Of a DNA stretch of 20,738 nt, positions 1,204 through 17,880 are shown piece by piece. The notes under the pieces were generated by a model that saw only the letters and a list, made by a program, of their open reading frames with translations, did no database searches and was not told the DNA's origin. The position numbers were made by a program, and so were the translations under genes. Source of the stretch: a virus; the IMG/VR virus record IMGVR_UViG_3300037011_000129, positions 1 to 20,738 of that record; one strand, given 5' to 3'. Position 1 is the stretch's first letter. Each line of letters starts with the position of its first letter.

Positions 1204-1751
1204 TACCCGAGCCTCTTAACCAAATTGTCGAACATCGGAGCGAGAACCTCGTCCGCGTACTCGTCCAGTTCTTCAGCGGCAGGGGCGAACCACGGACGGG
1301 GCGGGATCGTCACGAACTTGGTATCCGCACGAAGAGGGAATCCTTGGGACAGGAAGAACCCGCGAATCCCTTCGGTCACGGGAACATTCGCGCCCTTCTC
1401 GTGGACCTCGCCGACCATCTCAAGGTCTTGACCCTTGTCTCCGGTAGCATCATCGGGGATTCCGGCGTACCACCGCTTCCCCTCTTTCCACGTCGTCATG
1501 GCGCGGACGAAAGTACCGCTCTCGATGAGGAGCTTGTCGTGCCCCTTGAGGGTCTTGGTCATGTCGTTGAGTTCGGCCCACCCTGCGCGGCCCCGGTTGA
1601 TTCCATCGACGATGAAGCCCTTGGCCGCTTCAGCCAACGCCTTCATTCCGGCGTCCGTCCGCTTCCCGGTGAGCGATTGTTGGGCTCTCGCCATATCGCG
1701 GATGAGCTTCCGGTGCTTTCCGTAGGGGGCAATTCGTATGCTGATAGCCAT
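1203..1751 (-). CDS. Tail-completion / virion morphogenesis protein, HK97-gp10-like
   Basis: The product is 182 aa. The start ATG at 1751 overlaps the upstream stop as TGATG, with GGGG about 8 bases before it; the frame stays open further upstream but that part lies inside the previous gene. The layout fits the HK97 gp10 / virion-morphogenesis group: a helical N-terminus (residues 12-75), a middle with a substrate-like stretch (KRWYAGIPDDATGDKG, about 92-107), then EVHEKGANVP (116-124), and near the end TKFVTIPPRPWFAPAAEEL (144-162), matching the usual 'vHE.G...T...IPaRPf' pattern. In siphoviruses and myoviruses these proteins finish the tail or its junction with the head. Its place after connector and closure genes and before a large tail-type protein agrees. 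The family call is by motif pattern only. Confidence 0.75.
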   Translation of the reverse strand: MAISIRIAPYGKHRKLIRDMARAQQSLTGKRTDAGMKALAEAAKGFIVDGINRGRAGWAELNDMTKTLKGHDKLLIESGTFVRAMTTWKEGKRWYAGIPDDATGDKGQDLEMVGEVHEKGANVPVTEGIRGFFLSQGFPLRADTKFVTIPPRPWFAPAAEELDEYADEVLAPMFDNLVKRLG

Positions 1752-2194
1752 CAGATCGACCCCAGCGACTTCCTCTGCTGTTCTACATCGACGTGCAAGA
1801 GGATAGGCTTGGCGAAGTGCTTCTGGCGATTCCCTCCGAAGGGCGACGCCTTGCTCGCCTTGATGACGTTGAAATCGCAAGGCACGCCACCGACCTCCAC
1901 GATCCGGTCACCCTTCTTCAAGAGGAACCCCGTCTGAACCCTGTCCAGATCGGAGAACCGGAAGACGAAATGCGCCGTGGAGGGAAGGGCATCCCCGGTG
2001 GCCGATCTCTGGAGCTTGAAGGTCTGTTCGAGGCCGACAACCTGACCGATGATTTCGACGGGGGCAGTGTAGACGCGATTCTCCTTGGCCTCTCGAAAGT
2101 CCTTGTCCCTGACCGTGGTGGCGGTCGAGAGAACGCGGACTTTCACCACGATCTTGTTGATCCGAACAGGACGCAGACCAAGGCCGGGAGGCAT
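1751..2194 (-). CDS. Putative head-closure (stopper) protein
   Basis: The product is 147 aa, starting at ATG 2194, only 4 bases after the stop of the upstream gene. The ribosome site is weak (AGAGAG directly before ATG), so translation is probably coupled. The N-terminus is basic (GLRPVRINKIVVKVRV). The body is predicted beta-rich, with AHFVFRFSDLDR (about 74-85), LLKKGDRIVEVGGVPCDFNVI (about 91-111) and PILLHVDVEQQRK near the end. The 'kGDri.......f.Vi.v' pattern and the size recall head-closure proteins of the SPP1 gp16 / Phage_H_T_join type, which seal the connector after DNA packaging. Position between connector and tail-completion genes supports this. No diagnostic residue is visible, so another minor neck protein remains possible. 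Confidence 0.5.
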   Translation of the reverse strand: MPPGLGLRPVRINKIVVKVRVLSTATTVRDKDFREAKENRVYTAPVEIIGQVVGLEQTFKLQRSATGDALPSTAHFVFRFSDLDRVQTGFLLKKGDRIVEVGGVPCDFNVIKASKASPFGGNRQKHFAKPILLHVDVEQQRKSLGSI

Positions 2195-2198: not shown

Positions 2199-2423
2199 CT
2201 ATTCTACCTTCTTCTTCGACTTTGTGGCAATCAGGCCGTCTTTGCCGAGAGGGGGAGGGGTCGGAGGCTTTCCCTCATAGCCGAAGGGCTTGACCTTGAG
2301 GGACTTCTTCCATTTCCGCTCATCGAAAGCATCCTGATCCTCGCGGCCTTCCGTGAGATTCCGGAGCATATCGTTCACGAGGCTGGCGGGCTTCTTCTTA
2401 CCCTTCCCAGATTCTTCGGCCAA
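2199..2423 (-). CDS. Small basic protein with TTG start
   Basis: The product is 74 aa and unrecognised. The start is set by the ribosome site: GGAGAGGAG, then six bases, then TTG at 2423, inside the last 26 bases of the Zeta-like kinase gene. A longer frame would begin with another TTG at 2471 but has no such site, and the first in-frame ATG (2369) would lose a well-placed start. The protein is lysine-rich and probably partly disordered: KGKKKPASLVNDML near the N-terminus, the acidic helix EGREDQDAFDERKWKK, a proline run (KPPTPPPLG) and a basic end (ATKSKKKVE). It ends at TAG, 4 bases before the next ATG. It may be a small head or DNA-associated protein, or an adaptor for its neighbours; the sequence does not decide. 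Confidence 0.65.
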   Translation of the reverse strand: MAEESGKGKKKPASLVNDMLRNLTEGREDQDAFDERKWKKSLKVKPFGYEGKPPTPPPLGKDGLIATKSKKKVE

Positions 2424-3630
2424 TGGTAGCTCCTCTCCTGACGGCGGGCTTGATCTCCGGGCGTTCGTCAATCGCCTTGAGTGCTCTCTTGTGAATTTCG
2501 TCCACGTTCCACTTCAAGGATTCTTCAGGTATTCGGTCGAGACGCTTTGGGGTTTTCCCGCTATTGTCGAGAATGAAGAAGTCCGCATCCCCTTGGTGTT
2601 GCTCCATGAAGGCGTGGAAGTTCTTGGCCCCGACAGCGTAGCTCTCCGCGAAGAGTTGGGCATCGACCACGCGGCCCGTTCTTTCGGCCCTCTCAAGAAC
2701 TCCGCGCTTGGGATTTTCCCAAGTCTCCTGTGGATTGGCGTGGACGTAGGCGAAGGTGGGCTTGATCCCGCGCTTCTCGCACTCTTCGAGAAGCCACTTG
2801 TTCTCGGTCCCGTTCTGCTCGCCCGCCGAGTCGTAGATCGCGCCTACTTTCTTGGCGACCTCGGACGCCTCGGACACACTAGAGATGGCGTAGCCCTTCC
2901 CAGCCGCAACGCCGCCCGACGTGACCAGCACCGTGCGCTTCTCGGGGGGAAGTTTCGACACCGTATCGTCGAGGTACTTGAGGAAGGCTTTCTTGGCGAC
3001 GGCGTTGGCCGTCTGGTGGACGGCGACGTTGTAACGAGCGCGGGAATCCTTGATCTCGTCCTCGGACTTTCCTTTGGGGTTGTAGTCCGGAGAGAGGAGC
3101 TTCACGTCGTCCGTGGCGAAGACGTTGGGCGCGTCCCCGATCTCGCCCTTCTTGAGACGGGCAAGGTAGTTGTCCACCACTTCGTCCGGGGAACTCTCGT
3201 AGAGATCGGCGAATCTGGATTCGACCTGCCGTTCGTCCGGGGTGAGGTTGGGAAGACGAGGCACCTTGGGCGGAGGGGGAACCTCGTCTCCGGGGACTCC
3301 CACGCGAGATGCGGAGGTCATCCCGCCGTCTCCCGTCTTGTACGGATTGGGGGTGTGGGGATTGGGAACGTGGGTCAGGGGCTCCCCGTCCTTGGAATGG
3401 GTCGCCGTCCCCGCTCTTGGAGGGGCCTCGGCCCTGCTGGATAGGCCGGGGGGCTCTGCCGCACGCCGGGGCTCGCTGGGCGGGGCTTGCTCTCGTTTGG
3501 CCCTCTGGCGGCTCTCCCACGCAAGCCGGGAGGCTTCGGAGCGATCTCCCGCCTTCTCGATCCAATGAGGGAAGGCACCGACAACGCGGCGATTTCCGAA
3601 CAGGGCTTTGTTCAGTTCGCCTGTCGCCAT
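2398..3630 (-). CDS. Zeta-toxin-like P-loop kinase with long disordered N-terminus
   Basis: The product is 410 aa. ATG at 3630 overlaps the stop of the connector gene (TGATG), so coupling is likely; the frame extends upstream only inside that gene. Residues 28-42 carry the motif RSEASRLAWESR, also found twice in the 595-aa protein at 14325-16112. Residues 45-130 are rich in proline and probably disordered. A P-loop kinase domain follows: beta strand plus Walker A TVLVTSGGVAAGKG (233-246, K245), GAIYDSAG (264-270, D267), and RGVLERAERTGRVVDAQLF (309-327), which matches the arginine-rich lid of Zeta toxins, then FFILDNSG (351-358). Zeta toxins phosphorylate UDP-sugars; some phage members have no known substrate. 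No Epsilon-like antitoxin is next to it. Role in the virion operon is unknown; it could be packaged. Confidence 0.7.
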   Translation of the reverse strand: MATGELNKALFGNRRVVGAFPHWIEKAGDRSEASRLAWESRQRAKREQAPPSEPRRAAEPPGLSSRAEAPPRAGTATHSKDGEPLTHVPNPHTPNPYKTGDGGMTSASRVGVPGDEVPPPPKVPRLPNLTPDERQVESRFADLYESSPDEVVDNYLARLKKGEIGDAPNVFATDDVKLLSPDYNPKGKSEDEIKDSRARYNVAVHQTANAVAKKAFLKYLDDTVSKLPPEKRTVLVTSGGVAAGKGYAISSVSEASEVAKKVGAIYDSAGEQNGTENKWLLEECEKRGIKPTFAYVHANPQETWENPKRGVLERAERTGRVVDAQLFAESYAVGAKNFHAFMEQHQGDADFFILDNSGKTPKRLDRIPEESLKWNVDEIHKRALKAIDERPEIKPAVRRGATIGRRIWEG

Positions 3631-4565
3631 CACGCCGTTCCGATATACATGGCGGGGGTCGCGTACTGCTGGAGGATGTCGTCCACTTCGGCGTTCCCGG
3701 TCGTCCACGAACCCCCGGCGGGTCCGTTGAGGGCTTTCATGGGACTCAGGCTGTAGGAGTACCCCTCGACCGACTCCGTGTTGAGGCGGGTTCCGATCCC
3801 GCCGGGAGACTCCGCCGTGTCGATGTCCCCGATCCTCTGCACCTTGTCACGAATGAGGAGGAGGGCGGCCCTCTGGATTGCGTCGGGCACACGCCCATAT
3901 CGGACAACGGGCACTCCGGAAGAGGGGATGGCGAACTCCGTGGGCTCGCAGAGAATCTTGTGGGGAGGACCCGTCACCACGCCCGTCACGATGAACCCGC
4001 CGGACTTCGGCTCAACTTCCTTTCCGACAAGAACAGAATCCCCTGCGCGGATAGGGAGGCTGGCGGGATCGGAAGCGATCTGGATTTCTGTCGCCCCGCG
4101 AAGTACGGGGGCCATCGTAGTCGTGCGAATGGGCGCATAGTCATCGACCAGCCACCCGAACACTCCGTCCATAACAACGAAGAAGGGGTTCTCGGGGAGC
4201 TTCATGTTTCGAGAGAGCATCATGACGTAGCGCGACTTCACCTGATAGGCGATGTCGGGAAGGTTGAACGTGAAGAGTCCCGGCTTCTCAAGCGCGAGGG
4301 CGAACAGTTGGAGGATGGGGATTTGGTTCGGCATCCGGGCGACACTCGACCGCCCGGAGTCCGTGGGCTGGCGGAGGCGAACGGGGAGGAACCATTGATC
4401 GGTCAAGCGATTGATGAGGTGGCACACCTCCGGAATGAGGAGACGGAGCCTGTCGTCGGGGATACAGAACTCTCCCCCGCCATCGGGAATTCCAGCGCAC
4501 CTGACCTGTTCGATGGTCACGTACCGGAAAACCGTGTGTAGGCCGTTCGCCAATCCAGCAGGCAT
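3630..4565 (-). CDS. Head-tail connector/adaptor protein with central insertion
   Basis: The product is 311 aa. ATG at 4565 has GGGG six bases upstream and begins 9 bases after the previous stop. The N-terminal part (IPDDRLRLLIPEVCHLINRL, then DQWFLPVRL, about 35-64) and the C-terminal part (PDAIQRAALLLIRDKVQRIGD, then IGTRLNTESVEGYSYSLSP, about 227-275) together match the helical adaptor proteins that dock under the portal (HK97 gp6 / SPP1 gp15 group, Phage_connect families). Those are usually 100-200 aa; here about residues 140-220 form an extra, probably beta-rich segment (TEIQIASDPASLPIRAGDSV, FIVTGVVTGPPHKILCEP) placed between the two halves. The neighbours, capsid upstream and closure/completion genes downstream, support a head-tail joining role. 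The assignment rests on pattern recognition, not on a search. Confidence 0.6.
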   Translation of the reverse strand: MPAGLANGLHTVFRYVTIEQVRCAGIPDGGGEFCIPDDRLRLLIPEVCHLINRLTDQWFLPVRLRQPTDSGRSSVARMPNQIPILQLFALALEKPGLFTFNLPDIAYQVKSRYVMMLSRNMKLPENPFFVVMDGVFGWLVDDYAPIRTTTMAPVLRGATEIQIASDPASLPIRAGDSVLVGKEVEPKSGGFIVTGVVTGPPHKILCEPTEFAIPSSGVPVVRYGRVPDAIQRAALLLIRDKVQRIGDIDTAESPGGIGTRLNTESVEGYSYSLSPMKALNGPAGGSWTTGNAEVDDILQQYATPAMYIGTA

Positions 4566-4574: not shown

Positions 4575-4943
4575 TTATGTGGGATTCATCTTCTTCCGAC
4601 TGATGTGGTAGTAGAGCCACGGGTCGGCAAGGTCTTCCGTGATTTCACGCCACTCCTTGACTGTAACATCCAGAGTGTCGGAACGGAACTTCTTCGGGTC
4701 GATCATGGACTCGCGCTTCGTGAAGTCGATGGGAGGGAAATCCCCGATGGGGACTCCTGCGCTGTCCGTCTCCCGAAGTAGGTACGTTCCGGATTCCGGC
4801 GTTCCCATGCGGAGGAACAAATCGGCGTCACGCTCATCCGCTACGGGAGTCGCGCCTGCCGAAGTGAAATGGTAGGAGAGGCCGCTCCAAGGACCGAGAA
4901 TCTGTCTGACACCACCAAAGCGGAAAGTGAAATACCTCGTCAT
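4575..4943 (-). CDS. Hypothetical protein between capsid and connector genes
   Basis: The product is 122 aa and unrecognised. It starts at ATG 4943, after a G-rich stretch (GGGGGGCGG) that can act as a ribosome site, and directly below a 12-bp hairpin that follows the capsid gene. It begins with a beta-like, aromatic stretch (TRYFTFRFGGVRQILGPW), then TSAGATPVADERDADLFLRMG (about 27-47), TYLLRETDSAGVPIGDFPP, and ends with a helix KEWREITEDLADPWLYYH before KKMNPT. No membrane segment or signal peptide is visible. The place suggests a capsid accessory, decoration or connector-docking protein. It ends at TAA, 9 bases before the connector start. Confidence 0.65.
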   Translation of the reverse strand: MTRYFTFRFGGVRQILGPWSGLSYHFTSAGATPVADERDADLFLRMGTPESGTYLLRETDSAGVPIGDFPPIDFTKRESMIDPKKFRSDTLDVTVKEWREITEDLADPWLYYHISRKKMNPT

Positions 4944-5004: not shown

Positions 5005-6387
5005 TTAGACCAAGAGCGTCCGGCGACGGATGTTCTTCGTCTTCACGATGGCGTCCACGTTCTCCACCTGCGCGTCCACCTGATTGTAGACGATGGTCTC
5101 GATCTGGTCCGTGTTCTTGTTGAACTCCGTGAAGATACGGGTTCCATCGAGAATGCCCCAGATGAAGTTCTTGGGGTTCGCCAGCCAGATGAAGGACCCC
5201 TCGAACACCGTGTTGGCCGAGCCGCTCGCCGCGCCCGCCTTCACCACGTCCACCGCCGGGAACGGGTCGATGAAGGGGACGTTCGGCCCGAGCAGGCCGA
5301 GGGTCGAGTACGCCTGCGACGCGCCCGCCACGGGCATGAGACGCAGTTCCGACGCCGCGCCCACCGTGGGCGAGATGAGGAGCAGACGACCTTCGCGGTC
5401 GTCGCGGGCCACGTCGGTCAGGAGCGTCGGGATCGCCGCCTTGAGCGCGGCGTTGATCTGACGCGCCACCTCAACCGCGTTGAGGGTGCCGTGCGTGAGA
5501 ACGATGGTCACGCCCGCGCCGGGGGCTCCGTCCACCTTCAGCTTCACCGTGTCGTTGCTGGAGGTGATGATGAACGGCTGGAACTCGGAACCGAGGAACT
5601 CCGCGCTCGTCGCCGCCGTGATCGTGATCGGGGCGTCGTCGGGGATGAGGGGGATGCGGATCATCGGCGTGCCGAGCGGAGCCATCTCCGCGCCCTGAAG
5701 GGCCGCGTCGCCGAGGATCGTGCCGCGATCCGACACGACATCCGCCCAGTCCGTTGCGATGGAGTCGCCCACCAGCCAGCGGAGACCGGGGTCGTTCTTG
5801 TACTGCTTGGGGATGCGACGCTTCATCTCGGAGAAGATGCCCTTCTGGATCGAGGCACCCTTCACGTCGAGGATGTGCGCCCCTTCGGTCTGGAGGTTCC
5901 AGCCGTTGAGACGGCGCAGGAGGCGGTCGCGGGGGCTCGTGCCGACCGTGGTCACGTCGCCGTTGATGGCGAGGTCTTCCATGTCGGTCGAGATGCGCTC
6001 GACCATCGTGTTCATGATGGTCTGCTCGAACTCGTTCTGCTCGATGTTGCCCTGCAACACCTCGGTCGTGATGTTCCACGCACTGCGGAGCTTCTGCGCC
6101 CGCAGGACGATGCGCTGGAACTTCGCACGGGACAGGTTGCCCGTGTCGGTGGCCTCGTCCACGCTCTCCGTGACGGGCTCGCCGATCCACAGCTTGTCCA
6201 CGTCCATCAGGGGACGGGGCATCCGGATGAACCGGGAGATCGGGAGCAGGACCGAGAACTTCTTGACGAGGGTGACGAACTGGGTCTGCTGAAGCGGGTT
6301 CAGCAACCCGCCCGTGAGAAGGTCGCTCGTGGCGATGGTCTTCTCGATCATCTCTTCGTTGGCATCACGGCTCGCTACAGCGTTCAT
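5005..6387 (-). CDS. Major capsid protein, HK97 fold, with inserted domain
   Basis: The product is 460 aa. ATG at 6387 is preceded by AGGAGG at 9 bases, one of the strongest ribosome sites here. Residues 1-60 resemble an N-terminal arm; LLTGGLLNPLQQTQFVTLVK starts the N-terminal fold. GNLSRAKFQRIVLRAQKLRS (83-102), AWNITTEVL and FEQTIMNTMVERISTDMEDL (120-139) match the E-loop and spine helix of HK97-type capsid proteins; INGD follows. The axial and P-domain end is seen at 395-450 (FEGSFIWLANPKNFIWGILD, then TDQIETIVYNQVDAQVENVD). Between them, about 255-375, is an extra domain like flagellin/hook 'IN' modules (AVEVARQINAALKAAIP, then GRLLLISPTVGAASELRL). It follows the protease/scaffold gene, as usual. 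It forms the icosahedral shell; no N-terminal cleavage site can be set from sequence. Confidence 0.93.
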   Translation of the reverse strand: MNAVASRDANEEMIEKTIATSDLLTGGLLNPLQQTQFVTLVKKFSVLLPISRFIRMPRPLMDVDKLWIGEPVTESVDEATDTGNLSRAKFQRIVLRAQKLRSAWNITTEVLQGNIEQNEFEQTIMNTMVERISTDMEDLAINGDVTTVGTSPRDRLLRRLNGWNLQTEGAHILDVKGASIQKGIFSEMKRRIPKQYKNDPGLRWLVGDSIATDWADVVSDRGTILGDAALQGAEMAPLGTPMIRIPLIPDDAPITITAATSAEFLGSEFQPFIITSSNDTVKLKVDGAPGAGVTIVLTHGTLNAVEVARQINAALKAAIPTLLTDVARDDREGRLLLISPTVGAASELRLMPVAGASQAYSTLGLLGPNVPFIDPFPAVDVVKAGAASGSANTVFEGSFIWLANPKNFIWGILDGTRIFTEFNKNTDQIETIVYNQVDAQVENVDAIVKTKNIRRRTLLV

Positions 6388-6425: not shown

Positions 6426-7457
6426 CTAGTATTTGGCGGTGGCCTCGCCCGCCGCCTTGTCGAAGAGTCCTCTCCACGTCCCGGCCCTGCCCTTCGACGG
6501 CACCTTGACCGTGGAATCCACCGTCCCGCGAGGTCCGCTCTGGCTCACACCGCCAGCCTTCTCCACCCTGACCACGCGACCCTCCAGATCAGCGAGACGC
6601 CTGTTGGAGTCGTTCGTGACCGAGCCGAGTTCCTCCAACGACTTCTGGAGAAGCTCGGAGTTCCGCGCCTGTTCCTCGGCCATCTTCTCGATGGCGACTT
6701 CGATGAAAGACTTGGTGATCTCGGTTTGCTTCTCGACCAGACCGCCCAGAGCCTTCTCCAGCGACTCCGGAGTGAGGGACTTGCCGAAGTTGTCGTTGGT
6801 TCCGACCTGCGGAAGATTGCCCGCCTCGCGGAGCTTCTTCATGGTGAGGTCGAGGGCTTCCTTGGCCGTCATCGTGGTGGACTTGATCTCCCCGCCCACC
6901 TGAATGTCCCGGCGGGAGTCGGTCACGGCAGTCGCGGCCATCGCCGCGTCGCCCGTGGCCTTGTCGGGGCTGAACGCACCCTTGGGGCTCGCGCCCGAAA
7001 GGTCGCGGGGCGCGAAGGGCGCATCCGCCGCGATCATGGACACGGCCATCTGCTCGCCCGCGCCGAGAGCGGCACCGCTGGCCTTGGCGAGAAGGTGCCG
7101 AGTCGTCCAGAGGGCGTTGTAGGCCGCGTTGACGATCTCCTTCTCCTCGTCGCTTCCGGAGGAGAGAGGGGCGTCAGGGGTCGGGTTGTTGTACTTGGAG
7201 AGAAGGATGGCGATGTCGTTGACGAGATCAGCCACTCCGGTCTCTCCCGCGTTCCGGGCTTTCATCTCAGGCTTCATGACTTCTTTCTCCGGTTGGGGTT
7301 TGCAGTCCTTGACGGCCACCTTGTTCTCGGTTGCGGCAGGGCAGACGGCCTTCTCCGCAGAAGCGGGGCTGGCGGTCGTGGTGCTTGCAGGAGTCCGGGG
7401 AGTCGTCTCCATCTCGGTCGGCGTCTCCTCTTCCGTGGGAGTCCCTTCCTTGTTCAT
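6426..7457 (-). CDS. Possible nested scaffold protein from internal start
   Basis: An in-frame ATG at 7457 (Met227 of the protease/scaffold) is preceded by GGAGGAAGAGGAAAG, a very strong purine-rich ribosome site for this genome. Translation from it would give a 343-aa protein holding only the linker and the coiled-coil scaffold part, without the protease. This is the arrangement of lambda C/Nu3, where the scaffold is made from an internal start within the protease gene. The same bases encode Gly-Gly-Arg-Gly-Lys, so coincidence is possible. The start lies exactly between the folded protease domain and the linker, which favours a real nested gene. Confidence 0.5.
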   Translation of the reverse strand: MNKEGTPTEEETPTEMETTPRTPASTTTASPASAEKAVCPAATENKVAVKDCKPQPEKEVMKPEMKARNAGETGVADLVNDIAILLSKYNNPTPDAPLSSGSDEEKEIVNAAYNALWTTRHLLAKASGAALGAGEQMAVSMIAADAPFAPRDLSGASPKGAFSPDKATGDAAMAATAVTDSRRDIQVGGEIKSTTMTAKEALDLTMKKLREAGNLPQVGTNDNFGKSLTPESLEKALGGLVEKQTEITKSFIEVAIEKMAEEQARNSELLQKSLEELGSVTNDSNRRLADLEGRVVRVEKAGGVSQSGPRGTVDSTVKVPSKGRAGTWRGLFDKAAGEATAKY

Positions 7458-8135
7458 CTTTCCTCTTCCTCCGAACAAACGCCCGAGGGTCGCAAGTATC
7501 CCCGCGCCCTTTTTCATGTCGTCCTCGTTGACGCCTTGGAGGGCATCCTTCTCGACGCCCTGCCAGCCGTCCTTCTCTGCATCGTCGAGAGCCTTGGAGA
7601 TGGCCTCGACGTATCCCGTCCGGGGATTCGCCGCCTGCTTCTCCCGCGTAGCGGCGATGTGGTCCAGATCGAGATCGTTGATGGTCCGAGCCAGTCCGCT
7701 CGGCGTCATCTCGACCGCCACGGAGTCGCGGTTCTTGAGGTTGAGCTTCCCGCCGATGGAAAGCTGACGTTTGCACTCGCCGCTCGCCACTTCCTTGAAC
7801 AGCTTGCGGGCCTGCGGGAACTCGCCATCGAGTTCGATGGTGGCGAAGAACTTGTTGATCTTCTTGCCATCCTTGCCCACGCTGGTCACGATCTCACCGT
7901 CCACGGTCTTCCCGAACTCGAACGTGGAACGGTGATTCTCCAAGAACGGAACGCCCTTCTTCGAGGCGGTCGCCATCTTGGTGAGCGCGGCGGTGCTCAT
8001 GCGATCACGCTGAAGGTCCAGCCCGTCGTCGCTGGCGACGGCACGGACGTACATCTTCCCGGTCTTCTCGTCCTGCCACGCCTTTTCGCAATCGGCGTCG
8101 AACTCGAACCGGACGGCAGAGAACTTATCGTTCAT
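6426..8135 (-). CDS. Prohead serine protease fused to scaffold (XkdF / S78-type)
   Basis: The product is 569 aa from ATG 8135, which overlaps the portal stop by 11 bases; G-rich sequence (GGGGGGAGCG) precedes it. In-frame GTG/TTG codons just upstream (to 8156) are possible starts without a better site. Residues 20-180 are a prohead-protease domain of the XkdF-like/S78 type: VASDDGLDLQRDRM (33-46), FLENHRSTFEFGKTVDG (64-80, probable catalytic H68), KRQLSIGG (122-129, probable nucleophile S126), and RTINDLDLDHIAATR (150-164, acidic partner D156 or D158). Residues 185-300 are a flexible linker rich in T, P, E. Residues 425-525 are helical with likely coiled coils (SLEKALGGLVEKQTEITKSF; NSELLQKSLEELGS), as in scaffolds. 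It should shape the procapsid and then cleave itself and the capsid arm. It ends with TAG. Confidence 0.85.
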   Translation of the reverse strand: MNDKFSAVRFEFDADCEKAWQDEKTGKMYVRAVASDDGLDLQRDRMSTAALTKMATASKKGVPFLENHRSTFEFGKTVDGEIVTSVGKDGKKINKFFATIELDGEFPQARKLFKEVASGECKRQLSIGGKLNLKNRDSVAVEMTPSGLARTINDLDLDHIAATREKQAANPRTGYVEAISKALDDAEKDGWQGVEKDALQGVNEDDMKKGAGILATLGRLFGGRGKMNKEGTPTEEETPTEMETTPRTPASTTTASPASAEKAVCPAATENKVAVKDCKPQPEKEVMKPEMKARNAGETGVADLVNDIAILLSKYNNPTPDAPLSSGSDEEKEIVNAAYNALWTTRHLLAKASGAALGAGEQMAVSMIAADAPFAPRDLSGASPKGAFSPDKATGDAAMAATAVTDSRRDIQVGGEIKSTTMTAKEALDLTMKKLREAGNLPQVGTNDNFGKSLTPESLEKALGGLVEKQTEITKSFIEVAIEKMAEEQARNSELLQKSLEELGSVTNDSNRRLADLEGRVVRVEKAGGVSQSGPRGTVDSTVKVPSKGRAGTWRGLFDKAAGEATAKY

Positions 8136-10020
8136 CGCTCCCCCCACGACCAACACTGGCTCCCATCATAACAAGACGGCGGGCATCCGCCATAAGTTCT
8201 GTTGCAATTCTGAAAGCACCTTCGGACATCCCTCGGGACCTGCTCTTTGAGGACAACTTGAGCCGGGGGTTTTCCTGCTTCCCGCGAGGTTCGTTGGTGA
8301 AAGCCGTAGGAGGCTCCTCGGGCATGAACGCATCTTCCGGAGCAGAAGGTTCTCCGCCCGCGCTCGGCTCCATCCCCGGCTCGCTCGGCGCACCTTCCTC
8401 GCCCGGCGCACCGCTCGGCATTTCCGGTTTCGGCATCGCCTGTTTTTCGTCGAGGGCGATGGCGAGTGCGAGCCCTGCGGTAAGTTCGGCCATCGCAACG
8501 GACAAAGGCTTGTCCGCGAAGTAAAAGTCCTTGGGGTAAGGGGGCTTCCCAATCTTCTCGCGCATTTCGTTCGGCGTCATAGCACCGAGCGAGGCGTAGA
8601 TTTGATCCATCCGCGCCATGTCGAGGGGATCGGTGAGCGTGAGACGGGCGAACCGGAACTGAACTCGGACTTGCTTCCGGTACTCCTCCATCTCCTCGCG
8701 GTCGTCCGGCGTCTTGGGGTCGTTCCCGAGGAGGGCGGACAGGAGATCGAACACAATGGTCTGGTTGATGATGTATTCCTTGGCGAGACGATCCGGCTCG
8801 AACTCCTGCTCGTTGGTGATCTCGCGGGACACCTGCGAGGATGCCTTGTTGACGTTCTCGGTGGAGAAGAATACCGGGGCCATGCCGAAGATTTCACGAA
8901 CCTCTTCGTCGTTGGCCGTCCGGTAGGTCTGGAAGCTGGCGTCTTCGGTCACGCCCACGGTGAGCGGCTTGAGTTCGATAGCCGTCTTGTTCTGCTGTTG
9001 AAAGCCGACCTTCGTGGGCTCGACCTGAATGACCATCACCCGATGAGCCTGATCTACGCCGCGAGCTTTCCCGCGAACGAAATCCTCGACCTGTTGCATC
9101 GAGTCCTGCGTGAGCCTTCCGCCGGAGACCAGAAGGGCCATGCGGGGCACGGCATCGTTCTCGAAGAAGTTGACGTTTCGGATCGCCGACTGGCGGTTCC
9201 CGGCGATGGCCGTCGAAGCCGGGACGTAGCGCGGAGCCCCGTAGTAGGAATTCGTGGGGTCGTAGATCATGAAGTGGAGAATTTCGGTCGCCCGACTCTC
9301 TGCGGAGAGGGCGTTCTTTCCTTCCGAGAACTCTCCCTTCACGGAGTCCATCCCGCGCTTGTCGCCGAACTCCTTGAAGTACCGCTTCTGGTTTCCGCGA
9401 ATCTGGACGAAGCCGTAAACCGTCTGCTTCCCGCTCTCGTCGCGCATGACCCGCTTCCGCATGGTGGTCGCGGGAACGTGGTAGAGGCGGATAATTTTTC
9501 CGGCGTTGTTCCGAACGACTTCGATGAAACCATTCCCCGTGGATTCCTCGTCGGTCTTCATCAGGTAGCAGAGTTCGGTGAACGGCATCTTCTCGTTGGG
9601 GTAGCTGAACAAAGAGCGGACGATCTCGGTCTGCTCCTCGATGGCTTTCTTTTCCTTGTCCTTGGTCTCCGGCGTGAGGGGGTGGATGGGTTCGATGTTC
9701 CATCCGAGGCCGACCGTATTCCGGGCGTAGGACCGGATGCACCGGGCAAGTCGAGTGTTGATCTTGGGCGTCTGCGCCCAAACGGAGGGGTTGTAGGTTG
9801 GGGCGACGAATTCTCCGGACGCCTGTTGCTCGAACTGGTCGAGTTGGCGAGACTTGGCCTCGCCCTCGTTGCTGTCGTCTTCCGATCCGCGCTTGGAGTT
9901 TGCGGCCTCTACGCGACCGCCGCCCAATAGCGCGACCTTGAGAATCTCGTCCATATCCTCTTTGGTGACACTCCCCTTGAGGAGCGTTTCTCTGACGGTT
10001 CCGTTGAACTCTTCGTTCAC
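8125..10020 (-). CDS. Portal protein
   Basis: The product is 631 aa, starting at GTG 10020, which overlaps the previous stop as GTGA; the frame is open further upstream but that lies inside the preceding gene. The core is a phage portal: TPKINTRLARCIRSYARNTV (84-103), YHVPATTMRKR (180-190), then DPTNSYYGAPRYVPASTAI (254-272), a hallmark of the PBSX/SPP1-like portal group, followed by NFFENDAVPRMALLVSGG (284-301), IFGMAPVFF (377-385) and MTPNEMREKIGKPPY (481-495). The last 100 residues are rich in P, G and E (about 528-590), then basic, probably disordered. The protein forms the dodecameric ring at one head vertex through which terminase pumps DNA and on which the connector docks. It is followed, with overlap, by the protease/scaffold gene, the usual order. 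Confidence 0.92.
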   Translation of the reverse strand: MNEEFNGTVRETLLKGSVTKEDMDEILKVALLGGGRVEAANSKRGSEDDSNEGEAKSRQLDQFEQQASGEFVAPTYNPSVWAQTPKINTRLARCIRSYARNTVGLGWNIEPIHPLTPETKDKEKKAIEEQTEIVRSLFSYPNEKMPFTELCYLMKTDEESTGNGFIEVVRNNAGKIIRLYHVPATTMRKRVMRDESGKQTVYGFVQIRGNQKRYFKEFGDKRGMDSVKGEFSEGKNALSAESRATEILHFMIYDPTNSYYGAPRYVPASTAIAGNRQSAIRNVNFFENDAVPRMALLVSGGRLTQDSMQQVEDFVRGKARGVDQAHRVMVIQVEPTKVGFQQQNKTAIELKPLTVGVTEDASFQTYRTANDEEVREIFGMAPVFFSTENVNKASSQVSREITNEQEFEPDRLAKEYIINQTIVFDLLSALLGNDPKTPDDREEMEEYRKQVRVQFRFARLTLTDPLDMARMDQIYASLGAMTPNEMREKIGKPPYPKDFYFADKPLSVAMAELTAGLALAIALDEKQAMPKPEMPSGAPGEEGAPSEPGMEPSAGGEPSAPEDAFMPEEPPTAFTNEPRGKQENPRLKLSSKSRSRGMSEGAFRIATELMADARRLVMMGASVGRGGSDER

Positions 10021-10367
10021 GGTACACCAATCTCGGCCCAAGTGATCGCAACGGAATGCTTCACGCCACCAGCGATTCCCGTCGTGCGAAAACGAATCCG
10101 TTGAGCGGGCACGAGGTCGATCTTCTCCGGGGAGCGCGAGTTGGGCCACGAGTAAACCTGCCCCGCGAACGCGGCCACCCTGTCGAGTTCGTACACTCGA
10201 TCCCCGTCAACGATTTCCACGAAAAGGGATACCGCGCCTGCGGCATCAGCCGACCACAGAATCGTCCTTGCGGAAAACGGATGGTAGCGTGCGCCCGCTT
10301 CCTTGGTGATGTTGACTCCCGTTTGGAAGTCTCGCTCAACCTGAAGAGTTCCTTCGCTTACGCCCAC
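10017..10367 (-). CDS. Small beta-rich virion-type protein upstream of portal
   Basis: The product is 116 aa, starting at GTG 10367; an in-frame TAG four codons upstream at 10380 limits the choice, and GGATGGGA lies about 6 bases before. An ATG at 10378 is in another frame and stops after six codons. Predicted strands dominate: GTLQVERDFQTGVNITKEAG, ARTILWSADAAGAVSLFVEI, YELDRVAAFAGQVYSW, IDLVPAQRIRFRTTGI, HSVAITWAEIGV. No membrane segment or catalytic motif is seen. It is the first gene after the 79-base gap and is joined to the portal by a GTGA overlap. A decoration or tail-side beta-sandwich protein is possible; I do not recognise the family. Confidence 0.65.
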   Translation of the reverse strand: MGVSEGTLQVERDFQTGVNITKEAGARYHPFSARTILWSADAAGAVSLFVEIVDGDRVYELDRVAAFAGQVYSWPNSRSPEKIDLVPAQRIRFRTTGIAGGVKHSVAITWAEIGVP

Positions 10368-10404
10368 AGGTGTCCCATCCTATCTATCCGTGTCCGCAAA
10401 TTCA

Positions 10405-10433
10405 ACTTTACGTTGTTTTTTCCTTTTTGTCCA
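10405..10433 (-). promoter_or_regulatory. Possible sigma70-like promoter before portal genes
   Basis: The 79-base gap 10368-10446 is one of the largest gaps in the window and is AT-rich compared with its flanks. On the minus strand it contains TGGACA (10433-10428), a 17-base spacer made mostly of A, and TAAAGT (10410-10405). This matches the sigma70 consensus at 5 of 6 and 4 of 6 bases. It would start transcription of the portal, protease, capsid group about 30 bases before the GTG at 10367. It is a consensus match only. Confidence 0.4.
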
Positions 10434-10446
10434 GTCACAACCAACA

Positions 10447-10974
10447 TCACGGAATCGTTATCGGAACAGGGGAGCAAGTCTCCGAGAAATCGAGAGCGGG
10501 TTCCACGAAGAAAGTGGCGATCTCAGTTCGGAAATCGTCCACGAATGTCGGAAGGACGATGTGCGCCTGAACTCGCCACTGACCCAACTGATCCAAGTCG
10601 CCCACCACGGTCTTGTACCGAAGTCTCCCGTCAGTCCCATCTGTCACGAAATCCGCGTTCTTGACCTTGGCACCGCTGAGAGGTCGTCCGAAGATTATCT
10701 GCTTGGTCGGCGCACTGCTCAGATCGACGATGACGCCGCTCTTGTCCAGAACGACGATCTCGAACACAACCCCGATGTCGCCGAACCTGACCGATCCGAG
10801 ATTCGCCACAACTGCCCCCGGACTAATGCCTCGATGCAATCTGGCCTCGATGCGCGGCGCGATCTTCAAGACCAGCAGAAACCCGTCAGAGGCGGGAATG
10901 CACGATGACGGGATGTTGGGGAGAACCAGCGGTTGCCCAAAGGGGCCGCAGGCACCGTCACAACATCCCGTCAT
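10447..10974 (-). CDS. BppU N-terminal-like (baseplate upper protein) domain protein
   Basis: The product is 175 aa from ATG 10974, with GAGG five bases upstream. Residues 1-30 hold CCDGAC and a further Cys (C4, C5, C9, C25). From about residue 60 the pattern is that of the BppU N-terminal domain of lactococcal and related phages: VRFGDIGVVFEIVVLDKSG (62-80), VIVDLSSAPTKQIIF (81-95), NADFVTDGTDGRLRYKTVVG (105-124), DLDQLGQWRVQAHIV (125-139). That domain is a small beta-sandwich that anchors receptor-binding proteins to baseplates. Here there is no long receptor-binding tail and the gene sits just before the portal genes rather than in a tail cluster, so the fold may serve as a head-decoration or fibre-attachment protein. 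Confidence 0.6.
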   Translation of the reverse strand: MTGCCDGACGPFGQPLVLPNIPSSCIPASDGFLLVLKIAPRIEARLHRGISPGAVVANLGSVRFGDIGVVFEIVVLDKSGVIVDLSSAPTKQIIFGRPLSGAKVKNADFVTDGTDGRLRYKTVVGDLDQLGQWRVQAHIVLPTFVDDFRTEIATFFVEPALDFSETCSPVPITIP

Positions 10975-10984
10975 CTGGACCTCG

Positions 10985-11227
10985 TTAGACGTTCACCAAC
11001 GAGTCGATGACCTGCACCCGGCGCGGCAAGGCCGCCACCGCCGTCTGGAGAGCACCGAAGTTCGCCGCCGCGATGATCGCGGCACGGAGTTCCTGACGTT
11101 CTTCGATGAGAGCCATGAGCACGTCACGCAGGTCCCAGATGTCCGAGTTCCCACGGCCCGTCTCGGGACGAATGAAGACGGTCTGCCCGTCTCCAACAAC
11201 TTTCGGATCGCCACCACCCATCGGCAT
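10985..11227 (-). CDS. Small helical hypothetical protein
   Basis: The product is 80 aa from ATG 11227, with AGGAG seven bases upstream, so the start is well supported. It begins with a glycine-rich loop (MPMGGGDPKVVGDGQ), a short strand (TVFIRP) and then a long amphipathic helix (DLRDVLMALIEERQELRAAI, about 32-51) followed by an alanine-rich helix. No Cys, His cluster or membrane segment is seen. It may form an oligomer through the helix. It lies between the HAD phosphatase gene and the BppU-like gene, with short gaps, in one operon. I do not recognise it. Confidence 0.6.
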   Translation of the reverse strand: MPMGGGDPKVVGDGQTVFIRPETGRGNSDIWDLRDVLMALIEERQELRAAIIAAANFGALQTAVAALPRRVQVIDSLVNV

Positions 11228-11241
11228 AGTTCACTCCTTAA

Positions 11242-11871
11242 TCAAGCGGCCTCGGCCCACAAATACGTCCCTTGGAGGCCCAACAGGGCCTTGAGAAAAT
11301 CTCGTCCTTCGTCGGGCCGGACAATTCTATCATCCAGTTCGACACCGTTCTTGAGAATGTCGCCGACAATCGAACTCTTCGAGCCCATCCGCTCAACCAC
11401 GAGACCATTCTCGAAATCGAAAATGGCAATGGGGGCGACTTTCCCTTCGCGGTCGGCAACCATGAGCTTGACGGAAGATTTGGTCTCCCCGTCTATCTTC
11501 CACATCGAGCGGCGGCGGTCGAGTTCGGCGATGGTCTTCTGCCAGTCCCCGTCGAAGGCAACGGCCTTGTCGTCCACGGTTGCGTTGAAGAAAATCTTGC
11601 GCGAGTAGTCCTTGGCGTCAGTATCGGGGTCCTCGTTGATATGATCGAAGGGGATTCCGTGACGCTCCAGAAGATTCCGGGTCTGGGCAAGATCGGAACG
11701 GTGAGTCCAGATGATGATCTTCCATCCGGTACTCTTGAGGTAGATCAGAGCCTCCTTCGCGCCGGGAATGAGATTCTCATTCTCGTCCACGAGAGTCAGG
11801 TCGCAGTCAACCCCGATGACAGGGGCTTCTGCGCCCTGCTTTTCTACCACAACTCGCCGAGTTTTTCCCAT
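11242..11871 (-). CDS. HAD-superfamily phosphatase with C-terminal extension
   Basis: The product is 209 aa. ATG at 11871 lies inside the last 28 bases of the kinase-like gene, so the two are probably translated together; the ribosome site (GAGGGT) is close to ATG and weak. Residues 18-110 carry all HAD motifs: motif I GVDCDLTLVD (20-29; nucleophile D22, D24, T26), motif II IIIWTHRSD (52-60; T56), motif III K92, and motif IV VDDKAVAFDGDW (99-110; D100, D101). There is no large cap, so it should act on an exposed or macromolecular phosphate; this compact 'DDKAV.FDGDW' type is common in phages and bacteria. Residues 125-209 form an extra beta-rich domain ending RDFLKALLGLQGTYLWA. Pairing with a kinase-fold gene suggests linked phosphate chemistry; the substrate is unknown. 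Confidence 0.8.
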   Translation of the reverse strand: MGKTRRVVVEKQGAEAPVIGVDCDLTLVDENENLIPGAKEALIYLKSTGWKIIIWTHRSDLAQTRNLLERHGIPFDHINEDPDTDAKDYSRKIFFNATVDDKAVAFDGDWQKTIAELDRRRSMWKIDGETKSSVKLMVADREGKVAPIAIFDFENGLVVERMGSKSSIVGDILKNGVELDDRIVRPDEGRDFLKALLGLQGTYLWAEAA

Positions 11872-12746
11872 ACCCTCAGACCTTTGAGTTGCCGGATTCT
11901 TGAAATGACTCCGGCCTCTTCGTCGTTCTGGAAATTCCTCCCCCAGAGGAGGTCTTTCACTGCGGCCTCGTCGATGCTCTGGATTTCACCCAGTACGGAG
12001 GGGTGAATGGGAGTCCCTTTGAGATGCTTTCCTGCGCTCGTTCGGAACCACTTCCGGTTGTCGCCCTTCACGAAGGAGTACCCGTTGTCGATGGCGTAGA
12101 CGCGGCGTTCCGCATCCATGATCCAGTTGTTCGAGTGGCGGTCGATCTCGCCCCGGATGAAATCGAAGGCCGCGAGTCTGTGGAGCCAAGGATTCTTCTT
12201 GTCCTTGCGGTAGTCGTATCCCCGGTCGATCCACTGCCACGCGGTCGGCTGGTCGGCCCACGCCTGTAGGCTCCCGTAGCCGATGACGGCGATCTCCCTT
12301 CCGATGGTGGGGGGAGTGAGATCGAACCCGATAAGCTGGTCGAGTTCGTAGGACAACATCTCGCGTTCCGGCCCGGTGATCTTGGTGTCCACGCTCTCGC
12401 AGTACCGCTTGTTCTCAAACTGGAAGTGGACAGTCTTGAGAACAGCCTTCAGCGTGGTCATGATTCCGGACTCGATGCCGTCCTTGAACGTGACCTTGAA
12501 CGGACGGTGGATTCCCTGTCCGATGGATGCAACTTCGGACTCCTCGGAATCCATAAGAGCCCGGCACATGAGATCGCGGGTCTCGGAATCCCCGTGCTTG
12601 CGAGAGAGCGGAGTCCAATCCCCCTCGGCCCCTCGCATCATGTCGAGAAGGCCGAGTGAGAGTTCGGCGGACCCCTTTTCCGGGTGTTCCTCCGGACGGA
12701 GGCCGGAAAAGAGTCTCGCCGCTAGGACGGACTCTCTGGTTTGCAT
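11844..12746 (-). CDS. PI3/PI4-kinase / Fam20C / HipA-like kinase-fold protein
   Basis: The product is 300 aa. ATG at 12746 is chosen because the upstream gene stops 10 bases before and GGGCGG precedes it; the longer open frame lies within that gene. Residues 80-225 show the compact kinase fold shared by PI4K-like, Fam20C-like and HipA-like proteins: FKVTFKDGIESGIMTTLKAV (83-102), EREMLSYELDQLIGFDLTPP (127-146), IGYGSLQAW (155-163), then the catalytic loop FDFIRGEIDRHSNNW (194-208; D202, N206 or N207) and metal-binding VYAIDNGYSF (216-225; D220). The pattern 'E..aY.LD.l.G...vPpT...GSlQ.w...DRH..N...iD.G.sF' is characteristic. The C-terminal 75 residues are helical. It overlaps the HAD phosphatase gene. 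Substrate (protein, lipid or small molecule) is unknown; a kinase inside a structural operon is unusual. Confidence 0.75.
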   Translation of the reverse strand: MQTRESVLAARLFSGLRPEEHPEKGSAELSLGLLDMMRGAEGDWTPLSRKHGDSETRDLMCRALMDSEESEVASIGQGIHRPFKVTFKDGIESGIMTTLKAVLKTVHFQFENKRYCESVDTKITGPEREMLSYELDQLIGFDLTPPTIGREIAVIGYGSLQAWADQPTAWQWIDRGYDYRKDKKNPWLHRLAAFDFIRGEIDRHSNNWIMDAERRVYAIDNGYSFVKGDNRKWFRTSAGKHLKGTPIHPSVLGEIQSIDEAAVKDLLWGRNFQNDEEAGVISRIRQLKGLRVWEKLGELW

Positions 12747-12756
12747 CCGCCCTTTT

Positions 12757-13116: not shown

Positions 13117-13134
13117 TGGAAAATCCTCCTCTGT

Positions 13135-13728: not shown

Positions 13729-13747
13729 CTAGTTCCTTCCCTTTGGC

Positions 13748-14305: not shown

Positions 14306-14324
14306 GTTCCGATCCTCCTGAAAA

Positions 14325-16112
14325 TTATTGAGGGGCCACTTCACCTGTCGGCTGGGCCAGAGGCTCAAGCCGAAGAACCATTGTCGTATCCTTGGTGACC
14401 ACGGGGCAAGGACAAAGTTCCTCACCCTCCTTGCTGACCTCTTCGGACTCAAGCTCCATTCCCCACAGGCGATTCTCTACGACAGTCTGAACCTTGGAGA
14501 AATCGCTGGGAGCCTTTCCGGGCGGATAGGCGTTCTTCGACACCTTGGCGGGGCCGACGAACAGTTTCTTGACCTTCATGGCCTCGGGAACGTAGGGGAG
14601 ATCGAACGTGGCCCCGAATCTCCCAGCAGACATCCATTGCAGGGGGATCACCCGGTCGCCAACCTTGAGCCCGTCTTTCCCCGGCCTTGCGTATGCCGGA
14701 GGCTCCTCGGGCATGGCGTGTTCGACCATGATCTTTCCGGTGTATTCCGTCGAGGGCATCGCCCCGCGAGAGATGGCGTCTTCGATGACGCCCCTCGCCT
14801 TGTCCGTCAAGGGGAGCCTGTCGAAGCCGCTGGCCTTGAAGATTTTCTCGACCATTTCTTTTTCGAGCATTGGCTCAAAGCAGTCGAGCGATTTCCCGAC
14901 TTGCATAATGGACCTGCGCTCGCGGATGAAGGCTTCGTATTTGTTCGGATCAATCGTGTGGGAGACTTCAAGCCTCGCGGGGGTCTGTGGATCGACCTTC
15001 CCCTTTGCGGTGCTGATCGACACCATGACAGACTGACCCGTGGGATGATTGAACATGGAAACTGTTTCCTGTACGCCCTTGTGAGCGTCCATCTTCATCT
15101 CGCCCTTGGTCGTGTACCCGACATAGCGAAGACTGTTCTTCACCTGTTGGGCAATCCGGTTCGCGCTCTCCACAGTCCCGGCGTGCGACGATTCGTGATA
15201 GAGAGGGGTGATCTCGGGGTCCTTCTTGAGCCCTTTGATGCTTGCGATCATCGACCTTGTGACAGTTCCGGGGGTTGCGCCCCGTTCGGACTTCATCTTC
15301 TTGAACCAGTCCGTCCCGGCTTGACGGAGCTTCATTTCGTCCGGAGACAGGGCACCGGGTTGCGCCCGACCGCGCTTGTCCCACGCACGATTGGCGGCTT
15401 CGGAACGGTCTGCGTCGCTGTCGATGATTTGAGGATGGACCTTCGAGACCTCGGGGGAGACTTCTTCACGTTGCGGGAGAAACAGCTTTGCGACGGGTCC
15501 ACTCGGAGCGTCCTTCTCGGCCTTCTCTCGGGCGCGACGTTGCATCCCCGAGGTTACGATATTCGCCACTTCCTGTTGATGGGCGTCACGTTGACGGGAC
15601 GCCCACGCCTTCTTCCCGGCTTCGGAACGGGCACGGTCGGCATATGCCGCCGCCCTCTGATCTATGATCGAAGCTACGGGAATCTCTCCGAATTTTGCCT
15701 TGTTCTGGAACCCTTCCGCATCCGCGCCCTGCGCGGACTGATTCACGGCGGAAGGGCTATCGGGAAAAGACTCCGGCTCCTTCGCATCCACGCTTCTCGC
15801 GGACAGTCTCATGGCGAGGGAGCTATTCGGAAAATCCGAGGACTTCTCCACGTCCTGCGTCGTGGCCGGGACGTGCATCGGAGAACCGGGCGCGTGGAGG
15901 GAGCCCTTGACGTGGGACCGGAGGTGCATCACCGCGCCCAGCCCCTCCATCTCACCCTCGCCTTGGTAGTCCTTCTCGACCACCGCATCCTTCGCCGCCC
16001 CGAGCTTGGGGAGGAGGATTTGAGGGAGATGGAACTTGGTCATCGTCGTCCGCATGGACTTGTTGATTCTGTCCAACTTGTCCCTTGCGGAGCCGCTCAT
16101 CGGATCGCTCAT
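14325..16112 (-). CDS. 595-aa hypothetical protein with SEA...AW motifs and tandem repeats
   Basis: The product is 595 aa and unrecognised. ATG at 16112 is chosen for GGAGG five bases upstream; an earlier in-frame ATG at 16133 has a poorer site. Residues 72-134 hold a 22-residue repeat, seen best as FPNSSLAMRLSARSVDAKE (94-112) and FPDSPSAVNQSAQGADAEG (116-134). Two copies of RSEAxxxAWxxR occur at 162-173 and 236-247; a third is in the Zeta-like kinase. Residues 255-460 look folded: ITPLYHESSHAGTVESANRI (301-320), SVMVSISTAKGKVD (361-374), LEVSHTIDPNKYEAFIRERR. C567 and C569 form a CxC (CPCP) near the end. HESSHAGT recalls a metal-binding HExxH but lacks the spacing. It may be a large minor head or ejected protein. 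Confidence 0.68.
   Translation of the reverse strand: MSDPMSGSARDKLDRINKSMRTTMTKFHLPQILLPKLGAAKDAVVEKDYQGEGEMEGLGAVMHLRSHVKGSLHAPGSPMHVPATTQDVEKSSDFPNSSLAMRLSARSVDAKEPESFPDSPSAVNQSAQGADAEGFQNKAKFGEIPVASIIDQRAAAYADRARSEAGKKAWASRQRDAHQQEVANIVTSGMQRRAREKAEKDAPSGPVAKLFLPQREEVSPEVSKVHPQIIDSDADRSEAANRAWDKRGRAQPGALSPDEMKLRQAGTDWFKKMKSERGATPGTVTRSMIASIKGLKKDPEITPLYHESSHAGTVESANRIAQQVKNSLRYVGYTTKGEMKMDAHKGVQETVSMFNHPTGQSVMVSISTAKGKVDPQTPARLEVSHTIDPNKYEAFIRERRSIMQVGKSLDCFEPMLEKEMVEKIFKASGFDRLPLTDKARGVIEDAISRGAMPSTEYTGKIMVEHAMPEEPPAYARPGKDGLKVGDRVIPLQWMSAGRFGATFDLPYVPEAMKVKKLFVGPAKVSKNAYPPGKAPSDFSKVQTVVENRLWGMELESEEVSKEGEELCPCPVVTKDTTMVLRLEPLAQPTGEVAPQ
15718..15849 (-). repeat. Tandem 66-base repeat inside the 595-aa protein gene
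   Basis: Two adjacent 66-base units (15718-15783 and 15784-15849) both begin GCATCC on the plus strand and share roughly two thirds of their bases. The unit length keeps frame and encodes the 22-residue protein repeat. A weaker third copy can be seen in the protein about 22 residues earlier (M79, A83, D87, E89 align). It suggests growth of a flexible segment by duplication. Confidence 0.6.
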
Positions 16113-16140
16113 ACGGCCTCCGTTGTTTTCCATGACTCGT

Positions 16141-17073: not shown

Positions 17074-17083
17074 GTCGGCTCCT

Positions 17084-17827: not shown

Positions 17828-17853
17828 CAATTCACACAGGGACGAAATCCAAC

Positions 17854-17880
17854 ATTATCGGGGAATCCCCCCTTTGTCAA
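17854..17880 (-). promoter_or_regulatory. Sigma70-like promoter with dyad in the spacer
   Basis: In the 67-base gap between the amber-interrupted gene and the 247-aa gene, the minus strand has a perfect TTGACA (17880-17875), 15 bases, then GATAAT (17859-17854), 5 of 6 to the -10 consensus. An alternative -10, TAATGT, is offset two bases and gives a 17-base spacer. The spacer contains GGGGATTCCCC (17870-17860), an 11-base palindrome, suited to a regulator. The ATG at 17827 would lie about 20 bases after the transcription start. Confidence 0.55.

What the first reader, a model, noticed from the sequence alone, without database searches (positions are those of the whole stretch)
2398..3630. Zeta-toxin-like kinase in the head-tail joining cluster without an antitoxin
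The P-loop (GGVAAGKG) and arginine-rich lid match Zeta-type kinases, but the gene lies between the connector and closure genes, and no Epsilon-like partner is adjacent. It also has a long proline-rich N-terminus carrying a motif shared with another virion-operon protein, which could be a packaging or docking tag. This suggests an injected effector.
Basis: partly seen in the sequence, partly recalled or inferred. Interest (0 to 1): 0.6.

Follow-up and report, generated by a model that had tools for sequence, protein, structure and literature searches.

The report
Tagged cell-wall-precursor kinase in phage
An uncultured phage carries, among the genes that build its head, a toxin-like kinase of an unusual "shuffled" Zeta type behind a short N-terminal tag that other phage proteins also wear, which suggests that the tag loads such enzymes into virus particles for injection into bacteria.

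Summary
The minus-strand ORF at 3630-2398 (410 aa) is a Zeta-family P-loop kinase between a head-tail connector and a closure gene, with a proline-rich N-terminus carrying a motif shared with gp14325-16133.

New here:
(1) It belongs to the permuted subclass of gonococcal zeta-1 (ng_zeta1), not the classical Zeta fold. Its catalytic Asp (D174) precedes the P-loop (K245), and the named UDP-MurNAc-binding residues are conserved. Foldseek's top six hits are all ng_zeta1.
(2) Kinase plus a 74-aa gene form an inserted cassette, under strong purifying selection (dN/dS about 0.05) and missing from 14 related contigs.
(3) The tag is portable. A sister phage has a second tagged gene with an unrelated payload. 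A motif scan of IMG/VR found the tag on a classical Zeta kinase directly after the portal gene in two unrelated phages. One of these also tags a topoisomerase IB, beside MuF-like and ADP-ribosyltransferase genes.

Best reading: a virion-loaded effector that phosphorylates UDP-sugar cell-wall precursors. Packaging, injection and substrate are inferred. "No antitoxin" is unproven: the 74-aa gene could be one. Published work already links Zeta-like kinases to phage head proteins, so this is a new variant of a known kind.

The parts
2398..3630 (-). Tagged permuted Zeta-type kinase, 410 aa
3493..3630 (-). N-terminal tag, residues 1-46 (MATGELNKALFGNRRVVGAFPHWIEKAGDRSEASRLAWESRQRAK); core motif RSEASRLAWESRQRA, residues 30-44; predicted helix 24-48
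3256..3492 (-). Proline-rich linker, about residues 47-125, predicted disordered
   Evidence: pLDDT below 50 for 50-118; dN/dS 0.086 for residues 51-125
2401..3255 (-). Kinase domain, residues 126-410; D174, K177, N201 N-terminal to the P-loop (K245), lid R314/R320
2199..2423 (-). Small co-inserted gene, 74 aa, TTG start with a Shine-Dalgarno-like AGGAGAGGAG inside the kinase 3' end; role unknown, candidate antitoxin/immunity or accessory protein
3630..4565 (-). Head-tail connector gene (left border of the insertion)
   Evidence: phrog_442 E 1.3e-3; synteny
1751..2194 (-). Closure-type gene (right border of the insertion)
   Evidence: no family hit; identity by conserved order
14325..16133 (-). 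gp14325-16133, 602 aa, encoded between terminase and portal; two internal copies of the tag motif (about residues 169-186 and 243-260)

Best explanation
The gene is a cargo cassette inserted in the head operon of a contractile-tailed, probably lytic phage. Shown by sequence: a helical tag (residues 1-46), a disordered proline-rich linker, and a kinase domain of the permuted ng_zeta1 subclass with an intact catalytic set. Inferred: the tag docks on the procapsid (scaffold, portal or capsid interior) so that the late-made protein is loaded into virions, ejected with the DNA, and in the new host phosphorylates UDP-sugar peptidoglycan precursors (UDP-MurNAc/UDP-GlcNAc, probably at 4'-OH). That would halt wall synthesis early in infection, or help entry or takeover. 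A lytic phage that makes it late needs no antitoxin, though the small partner gene may restrain it before packaging. My estimates: kinase class 0.95, tag as a shared functional module 0.85, virion loading and injection 0.6, UDP-sugar substrate 0.55.
For: An HMM built only from four plasmid proteins hits the kinase at E 4.9e-11 (45.8 bits; best of 5000 shuffles 8.4), residues 130-325, spanning both the Asp block and the P-loop block. The family profile hits PDB 6EPH, Zeta_1 toxin, at E 1e-84. AF2 model pLDDT about 90 or more over most of the kinase domain; Foldseek top six all ng_zeta1, best E 2.8e-11, rmsd 3.1, classical zeta rmsd about 12. Asp56, Lys59, Asn75, Lys115, Arg175, Arg181 of ng_zeta1 correspond to D174, K177, N201, K245, R314, R320 (PMC5923241). 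dN/dS kinase 0.052, tag 0.026, small gene 0.067. Insertion: connector abuts closure in 14 related contigs. Tag on a second payload in L003, and on classical zeta (Pfam E 1e-17), topo IB (E 3.5e-25) and an unknown protein after portal, next to MuF-like and ADP-ribosyltransferase (E 1e-20) genes in G001. The tag is the only stretch the two kinds of zeta kinase share (76-80% over 15-17 aa). No tyrosine integrase in 9 related or tagged contigs, controls 14/14. Tail sheath- and tube-like genes downstream in L003 (by eye).
Against: No virion proteomics; the phage is uncultured. In gp14325 the motif is internal, not N-terminal, and one homologue (L029) lacks it, so it could do something other than packaging. 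Parts of the substrate pocket diverge from the subclass (FEGQL to YDSAGEQ; GRGAS..IQG..P to GRVVDAQ..YAVGAK; GKT/S to GKG), so the sugar substrate may differ. A co-inserted small gene is unexplained. Neighbouring insertions at this and nearby junctions are endonuclease-like, Mom-like or glycosyltransferase genes without a tag, so position in the head operon alone proves nothing. Only two genomes with this kinase are known.
Confidence: 0.55

Rival explanations
1. A toxin-antitoxin or immunity pair carried as a moron: the kinase is the toxin and the overlapping 74-aa gene its antitoxin (ng_epsilon1-like), used for exclusion of other phages or maintenance, not injection.
For: The small gene is always with the kinase (2 of 2), overlaps its 3' end with its own Shine-Dalgarno-like site, and is under purifying selection. 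ng_epsilon1 is a small extended polypeptide; AF2 gives the 74-aa protein two short helices and otherwise coil, at low confidence.
Against: No sequence relative of the small protein found. The other family members looked at mostly lack a credible adjacent small gene. The gene carries a tag shared with virion-operon proteins and no promoter of its own was shown. No integrase in related contigs, so little need for addiction.
Confidence: 0.2
2. A late-expressed moron enzyme that acts in the producing cell (host takeover, lysis help), with no packaging; the tag binds some other phage protein.
For: The junction is an insertion site for other non-virion genes (a homing-endonuclease-like gene in L030). 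Effects on cell wall late in infection could assist lysis.
Against: The other inserted genes have no tag. The tagged proteins in unrelated phages cluster immediately after portal and around MuF-like genes with an Alt-like ADP-ribosyltransferase, a typical setting of injected effectors (PMC5512222).
Confidence: 0.2
3. A structural or assembly kinase: the protein modifies a phage head or tail component (for example phosphorylates an assembly factor) in the head-tail joining step.
For: Lies between connector and closure genes.
Against: Dispensable: 14 related phages join heads to tails without it; family relatives are plasmid and conjugative-element kinases with no role in virus assembly.
Confidence: 0.05

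Closest known systems
ng_zeta1 of the gonococcal epsilon1/zeta1 system (PDB 6EPG/6EPH/6EPI; PMC5923241)
   Same: Permuted order (catalytic Asp before P-loop), all named catalytic and UDP-MurNAc-contact residues, overall fold.
   Different: No C-terminal OB domain; has an N-terminal tag and proline-rich linker; diverged parts of the pocket; lies in a phage head operon; antitoxin not identified.
Lone ng_zeta1-like kinases of conjugative plasmids and other elements (Sphingobium, Methylomonas, Paraburkholderia, Verrucomicrobia and Chlorobiaceae MAGs; L017, L018, L052-L079)
   Same: Same domain from the helical extension to the lid; usually no clear adjacent antitoxin.
   Different: No tag; C-terminal extensions instead, some with a KfrB domain.
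Zeta-like kinases in polyvalent proteins and MuF fusions (Iyer et al. 2017, PMC5512222)
   Same: Zeta-type kinase encoded with virion genes and proposed to be delivered with the DNA.
   Different: Here a single kinase behind a short tag, no MuF or other fused domain; the paper does not describe this tag in the passages read.
T4 internal proteins with a capsid targeting sequence (PMC3012670)
   Same: Diverse payloads sharing only a short N-terminal targeting peptide.
   Different: Packaging shown for T4, only inferred here; no sequence relation tested.
Tagged classical zeta kinase of IMGVR contigs 3300001765_000001 and 3300037882_001467
   Same: Same core tag RSEASRxAWxxRQRA, directly after portal.
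   Different: Classical, non-permuted zeta kinase (Pfam E 1e-17 over positions 11-174), no detectable similarity outside the tag.

Membership tests
Pfam Zeta_toxin (PF06414) | Score above the curated cut-off | tested here: met
   25.9 vs 22.3 bits, partial profile 94-191
ng_zeta1 permuted zeta subclass | Catalytic Asp block N-terminal to the P-loop | tested here: met
   Independent HMM E 4.9e-11 across both blocks; alignment to 6EPH with D56=D174
ng_zeta1 permuted zeta subclass | UDP-MurNAc ligands Asp56, Lys59, Asn75, Arg175, Arg181 and Lys115 | tested here: met
   D174, K177, N201, R314, R320, K245
ng_zeta1 permuted zeta subclass | Fold | tested here: met
   Foldseek top six all ng_zeta1, E 2.8e-11 to 2.3e-9
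ng_zeta1 permuted zeta subclass | C-terminal OB domain (gonococcal members) | tested here: not met
   Protein ends shortly after the kinase domain; the paper says the domain is nearly confined to gonococcal members, so it does not define the subclass
ng_zeta1 permuted zeta subclass | Phosphorylates UDP-sugars at 4'-OH | not testable with these tools
   Needs enzyme assay
Epsilon/zeta toxin-antitoxin system | Cognate antitoxin gene adjacent | tested here: inconclusive
   Co-inserted overlapping 74-aa gene, no homology to any antitoxin
Polyvalent protein (PMC5512222) | Two to fifteen domains in one polypeptide | tested here: not met
   One recognisable domain plus tag
Polyvalent protein (PMC5512222) | Encoded with virion components | tested here: met
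   Head operon
MuF polymorphic toxin | MuF domain | tested here: not met
   No MuF match
T4-type internal protein with targeting peptide | Short N-terminal peptide shared by unrelated payloads | tested here: met
   Kinase, L003 paralogue, classical zeta, topo IB, unknown
T4-type internal protein with targeting peptide | Present in the virion and ejected | not testable with these tools
   Needs proteomics
T4-type internal protein with targeting peptide | Tag removed by the prohead protease | not tested
   No cleavage rule known for this protease

The most novel reading that the evidence does not exclude
RS-x-A/S-S-R-x-A-W-x-x-R-x-R is a portable virion-loading signal used by unrelated tailed phages to package interchangeable effectors (permuted and classical zeta kinases, topoisomerase IB and others), so that scanning for it would reveal injected phage effectors at large.
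Probability: 0.5. Interest if true: 0.8.

Novelty: new variant of a known kind. Interest (0 to 1): 0.62.

Why it matters
Injected phage effectors are hard to recognise because no general loading signal outside T4-like phages is in common use (own knowledge). Here one short motif links a permuted cell-wall-precursor kinase to a second payload in a sister phage and, in unrelated phages, to a classical zeta kinase and a topoisomerase beside portal, MuF-like and ADP-ribosyltransferase genes. If it is a loading tag, it gives a simple, testable rule for finding injected proteins in metagenomic phages. It also places the ng_zeta1 toxin subclass, known from a gonococcal plasmid toxin-antitoxin pair, in a phage head operon.

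Tried and rejected
Sequence-only PDB search with the single protein: nothing. Phage records with whole protein or domain: no match. NCBIfam and PADLOC: no match for the kinase. First genome-contig scan with the window sequence first found none; with plasmid sequences first it gave 27 loci. IMG/VR scans with the kinase, the tag and the kinase-domain alignment found only the one sister contig, and with the plasmid subfamily nothing. Small ORFs next to plasmid relatives as antitoxins: rejected as mostly spurious overlapping frames on inspection. Homology of the far N-terminus of gp14325 and its L006 homologue (first 80 aa) to the kinase or L003-paralogue N-terminus: not supported (65 to 2312 of 3000 shuffles as good). 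Motif scan of 399 Pseudomonadota genomes: dominated by chance matches (about 70 forward or reverse against about 30 in the reversed control) and not pursued. Tag against 50,697 phage records by tblastn: no match, too short to be decisive. A structural/assembly role was set aside because 14 related contigs lack the gene.

Full report
1. What is there. The window is a complete IMG/VR record of 20,738 bp. Its genes run on the minus strand in a head operon: terminase (18762-20627), portal (8125-10149), protease/scaffold region (6426-8156), HK97-type capsid protein (5005-6387), a small gene (4575-4943), connector (3630-4565), the kinase (3630-2398), a small gene (2423-2199), a closure-type gene (2194-1751), a neck1 protein and a tail protein. 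The kinase starts at an ATG coupled to the connector stop (TGATG). K245 lies in GGVAAGKG.

2. An inserted cassette. Portal, connector and capsid-protein searches gave many related contigs. In 14 of them the connector is followed directly by the closure gene; one (L030) has an endonuclease-like gene at this junction, one (L043) a 256-bp gap, and only the window and L003 have the kinase and small gene. Other genes sit at nearby junctions: a Mom-domain protein in L021, a glycosyltransferase in L025. The cassette is functional: against L003 the kinase shows 85.5 synonymous and 17.5 non-synonymous changes (dN/dS 0.052), the tag 0.026, the linker 0.086, the small gene 0.067.

3. The kinase class. 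Pfam matched only profile positions 94-191. The reason is a permutation. Weak plasmid relatives led to a family on conjugative plasmids and in genomes of Sphingobium, Burkholderiales, Verrucomicrobia and Chlorobiaceae MAGs, the same family as gonococcal zeta-1. A profile from four plasmid proteins only, without the phage protein, finds the phage protein at E 4.9e-11 over residues 130-325. In ng_zeta1 two sequence blocks have swapped place, so the catalytic Asp56 precedes the P-loop Lys115 (PMC5923241). The printed alignment to 6EPH gives Asp56, Lys59, Asn75, Lys115, Arg175, Arg181 as D174, K177, N201, K245, R314, R320; Lys59 and Asn75 contact the carboxyethyl group of UDP-MurNAc. The AF2 model is confident for residues 125-400, and its six best PDB matches are all ng_zeta1 chains. 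BFVD also holds phage proteins with a similar fold, mostly as parts of 766-1114-residue proteins, and a giant-virus protein. So the fold is not new to viruses.

4. The tag. Residues 1-46 recur in L003 as the start of a second gene between connector and kinase, with an unrelated payload of about 170 aa (60% identity in the tag). A core motif also occurs twice inside gp14325-16133 and once in its L006 homologue (0 of 3000 shuffles as good). I then scanned IMG/VR for DNA encoding RSEA...AW..R.R, with no reference to kinases. Of eight stretches, three are this phage group, three are not in a convincing frame, and two (L086, L087) are N-terminal tags on a classical Zeta kinase that directly follows the portal gene. 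The larger contig (G001, 100 kb) has a row of such genes: portal; tagged zeta kinase; MuF-like protein; tagged topoisomerase IB; ADP-ribosyltransferase; tagged unknown; ADP-ribosylglycohydrolase. The window kinase and these zeta kinases share nothing detectable but the tag (15-17 aa, 76-80% identity). A looser pattern found 7 sites in 17 virus records, all at tagged genes and none for the reversed pattern; in 399 bacterial genomes its matches are mostly chance. Caution: two of those virus records had been chosen by the stricter motif.

5. How it most likely works. Shown: kinase class, catalytic set, insertion, purifying selection, a shared tag on different payloads in virion operons. Inferred: the tag is a helix in a disordered arm that docks the protein in the procapsid, as the capsid targeting sequence does for T4 internal proteins (PMC3012670); the protein is ejected with DNA; the kinase then depletes UDP-MurNAc/UDP-GlcNAc. 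Iyer et al. already proposed that zeta-like kinases in polyvalent and MuF proteins act on the wall on entry (PMC5512222). No tyrosine integrase was found in nine related or tagged contigs, which fits a lytic phage that would not need an antitoxin, but the contigs may be fragments.

6. The antitoxin question. No classical epsilon gene is present, but this subclass has a different, small, extended antitoxin. The co-inserted 74-aa gene has two short predicted helices and no relatives. It may be an antitoxin, an immunity protein or a loading partner; nothing here decides.

7. Novelty. A new variant of a known kind: permuted zeta kinase plus short portable tag in a head operon. The tag as a general loading signal is the interesting claim and needs virion proteomics.

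Noticed in passing
L091 (G001:45000-64900) 10083-19745: Array after portal in an unrelated 100-kb phage contig: tagged classical zeta kinase, MuF-like, tagged topoisomerase IB, ADP-ribosyltransferase, tagged unknown protein, ADP-ribosylglycohydrolase.
   Followed up: partly
window 17084-17830 and 11844-12740: Two conserved operon proteins share an N-terminal MQTxES(L/V) start (MQTTESLRYGLKF, MQTRESVLAARLF), possibly a second tag; the first also has NPWRDEFGKFTDE, resembling NPYRDGTNGQFTSKD in the ADP-ribosyltransferase of G001.
   Followed up: no
window 11844-12740: Kinase-like protein of the SCO1664/PI3-PI4-kinase type (TIGR03843 E 3e-11 but below its cut-off), conserved in related phages, next to a HAD-type phosphatase (11242-11871, phrog_1238 E 6e-18).
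   Followed up: no
L021 677-2176: Insertion between capsid and next gene: protein with a Mom domain (E 2e-17) behind an endonuclease-like N-terminal half (by eye).
   Followed up: partly
L030 6222-7265: LAGLIDADG-like gene (by eye) at exactly the connector-closure junction where the window has the kinase.
   Followed up: partly
L025 about 1450-2310: Glycosyltransferase-like gene (PF13524 E 2e-12) inserted before the connector.
   Followed up: no
L077 4084-6179: Herbaspirillum genome with a classical zeta kinase gene (by eye) directly before a permuted one, reminiscent of the zeta1/zeta2 pair of gonococcal plasmids.
   Followed up: no
BFVD A0A2R8FDL0 (Brazilian cedratvirus): Giant-virus P-loop protein that matches the permuted zeta model (E 1.3e-9, TM 0.67 by target).
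   Followed up: no
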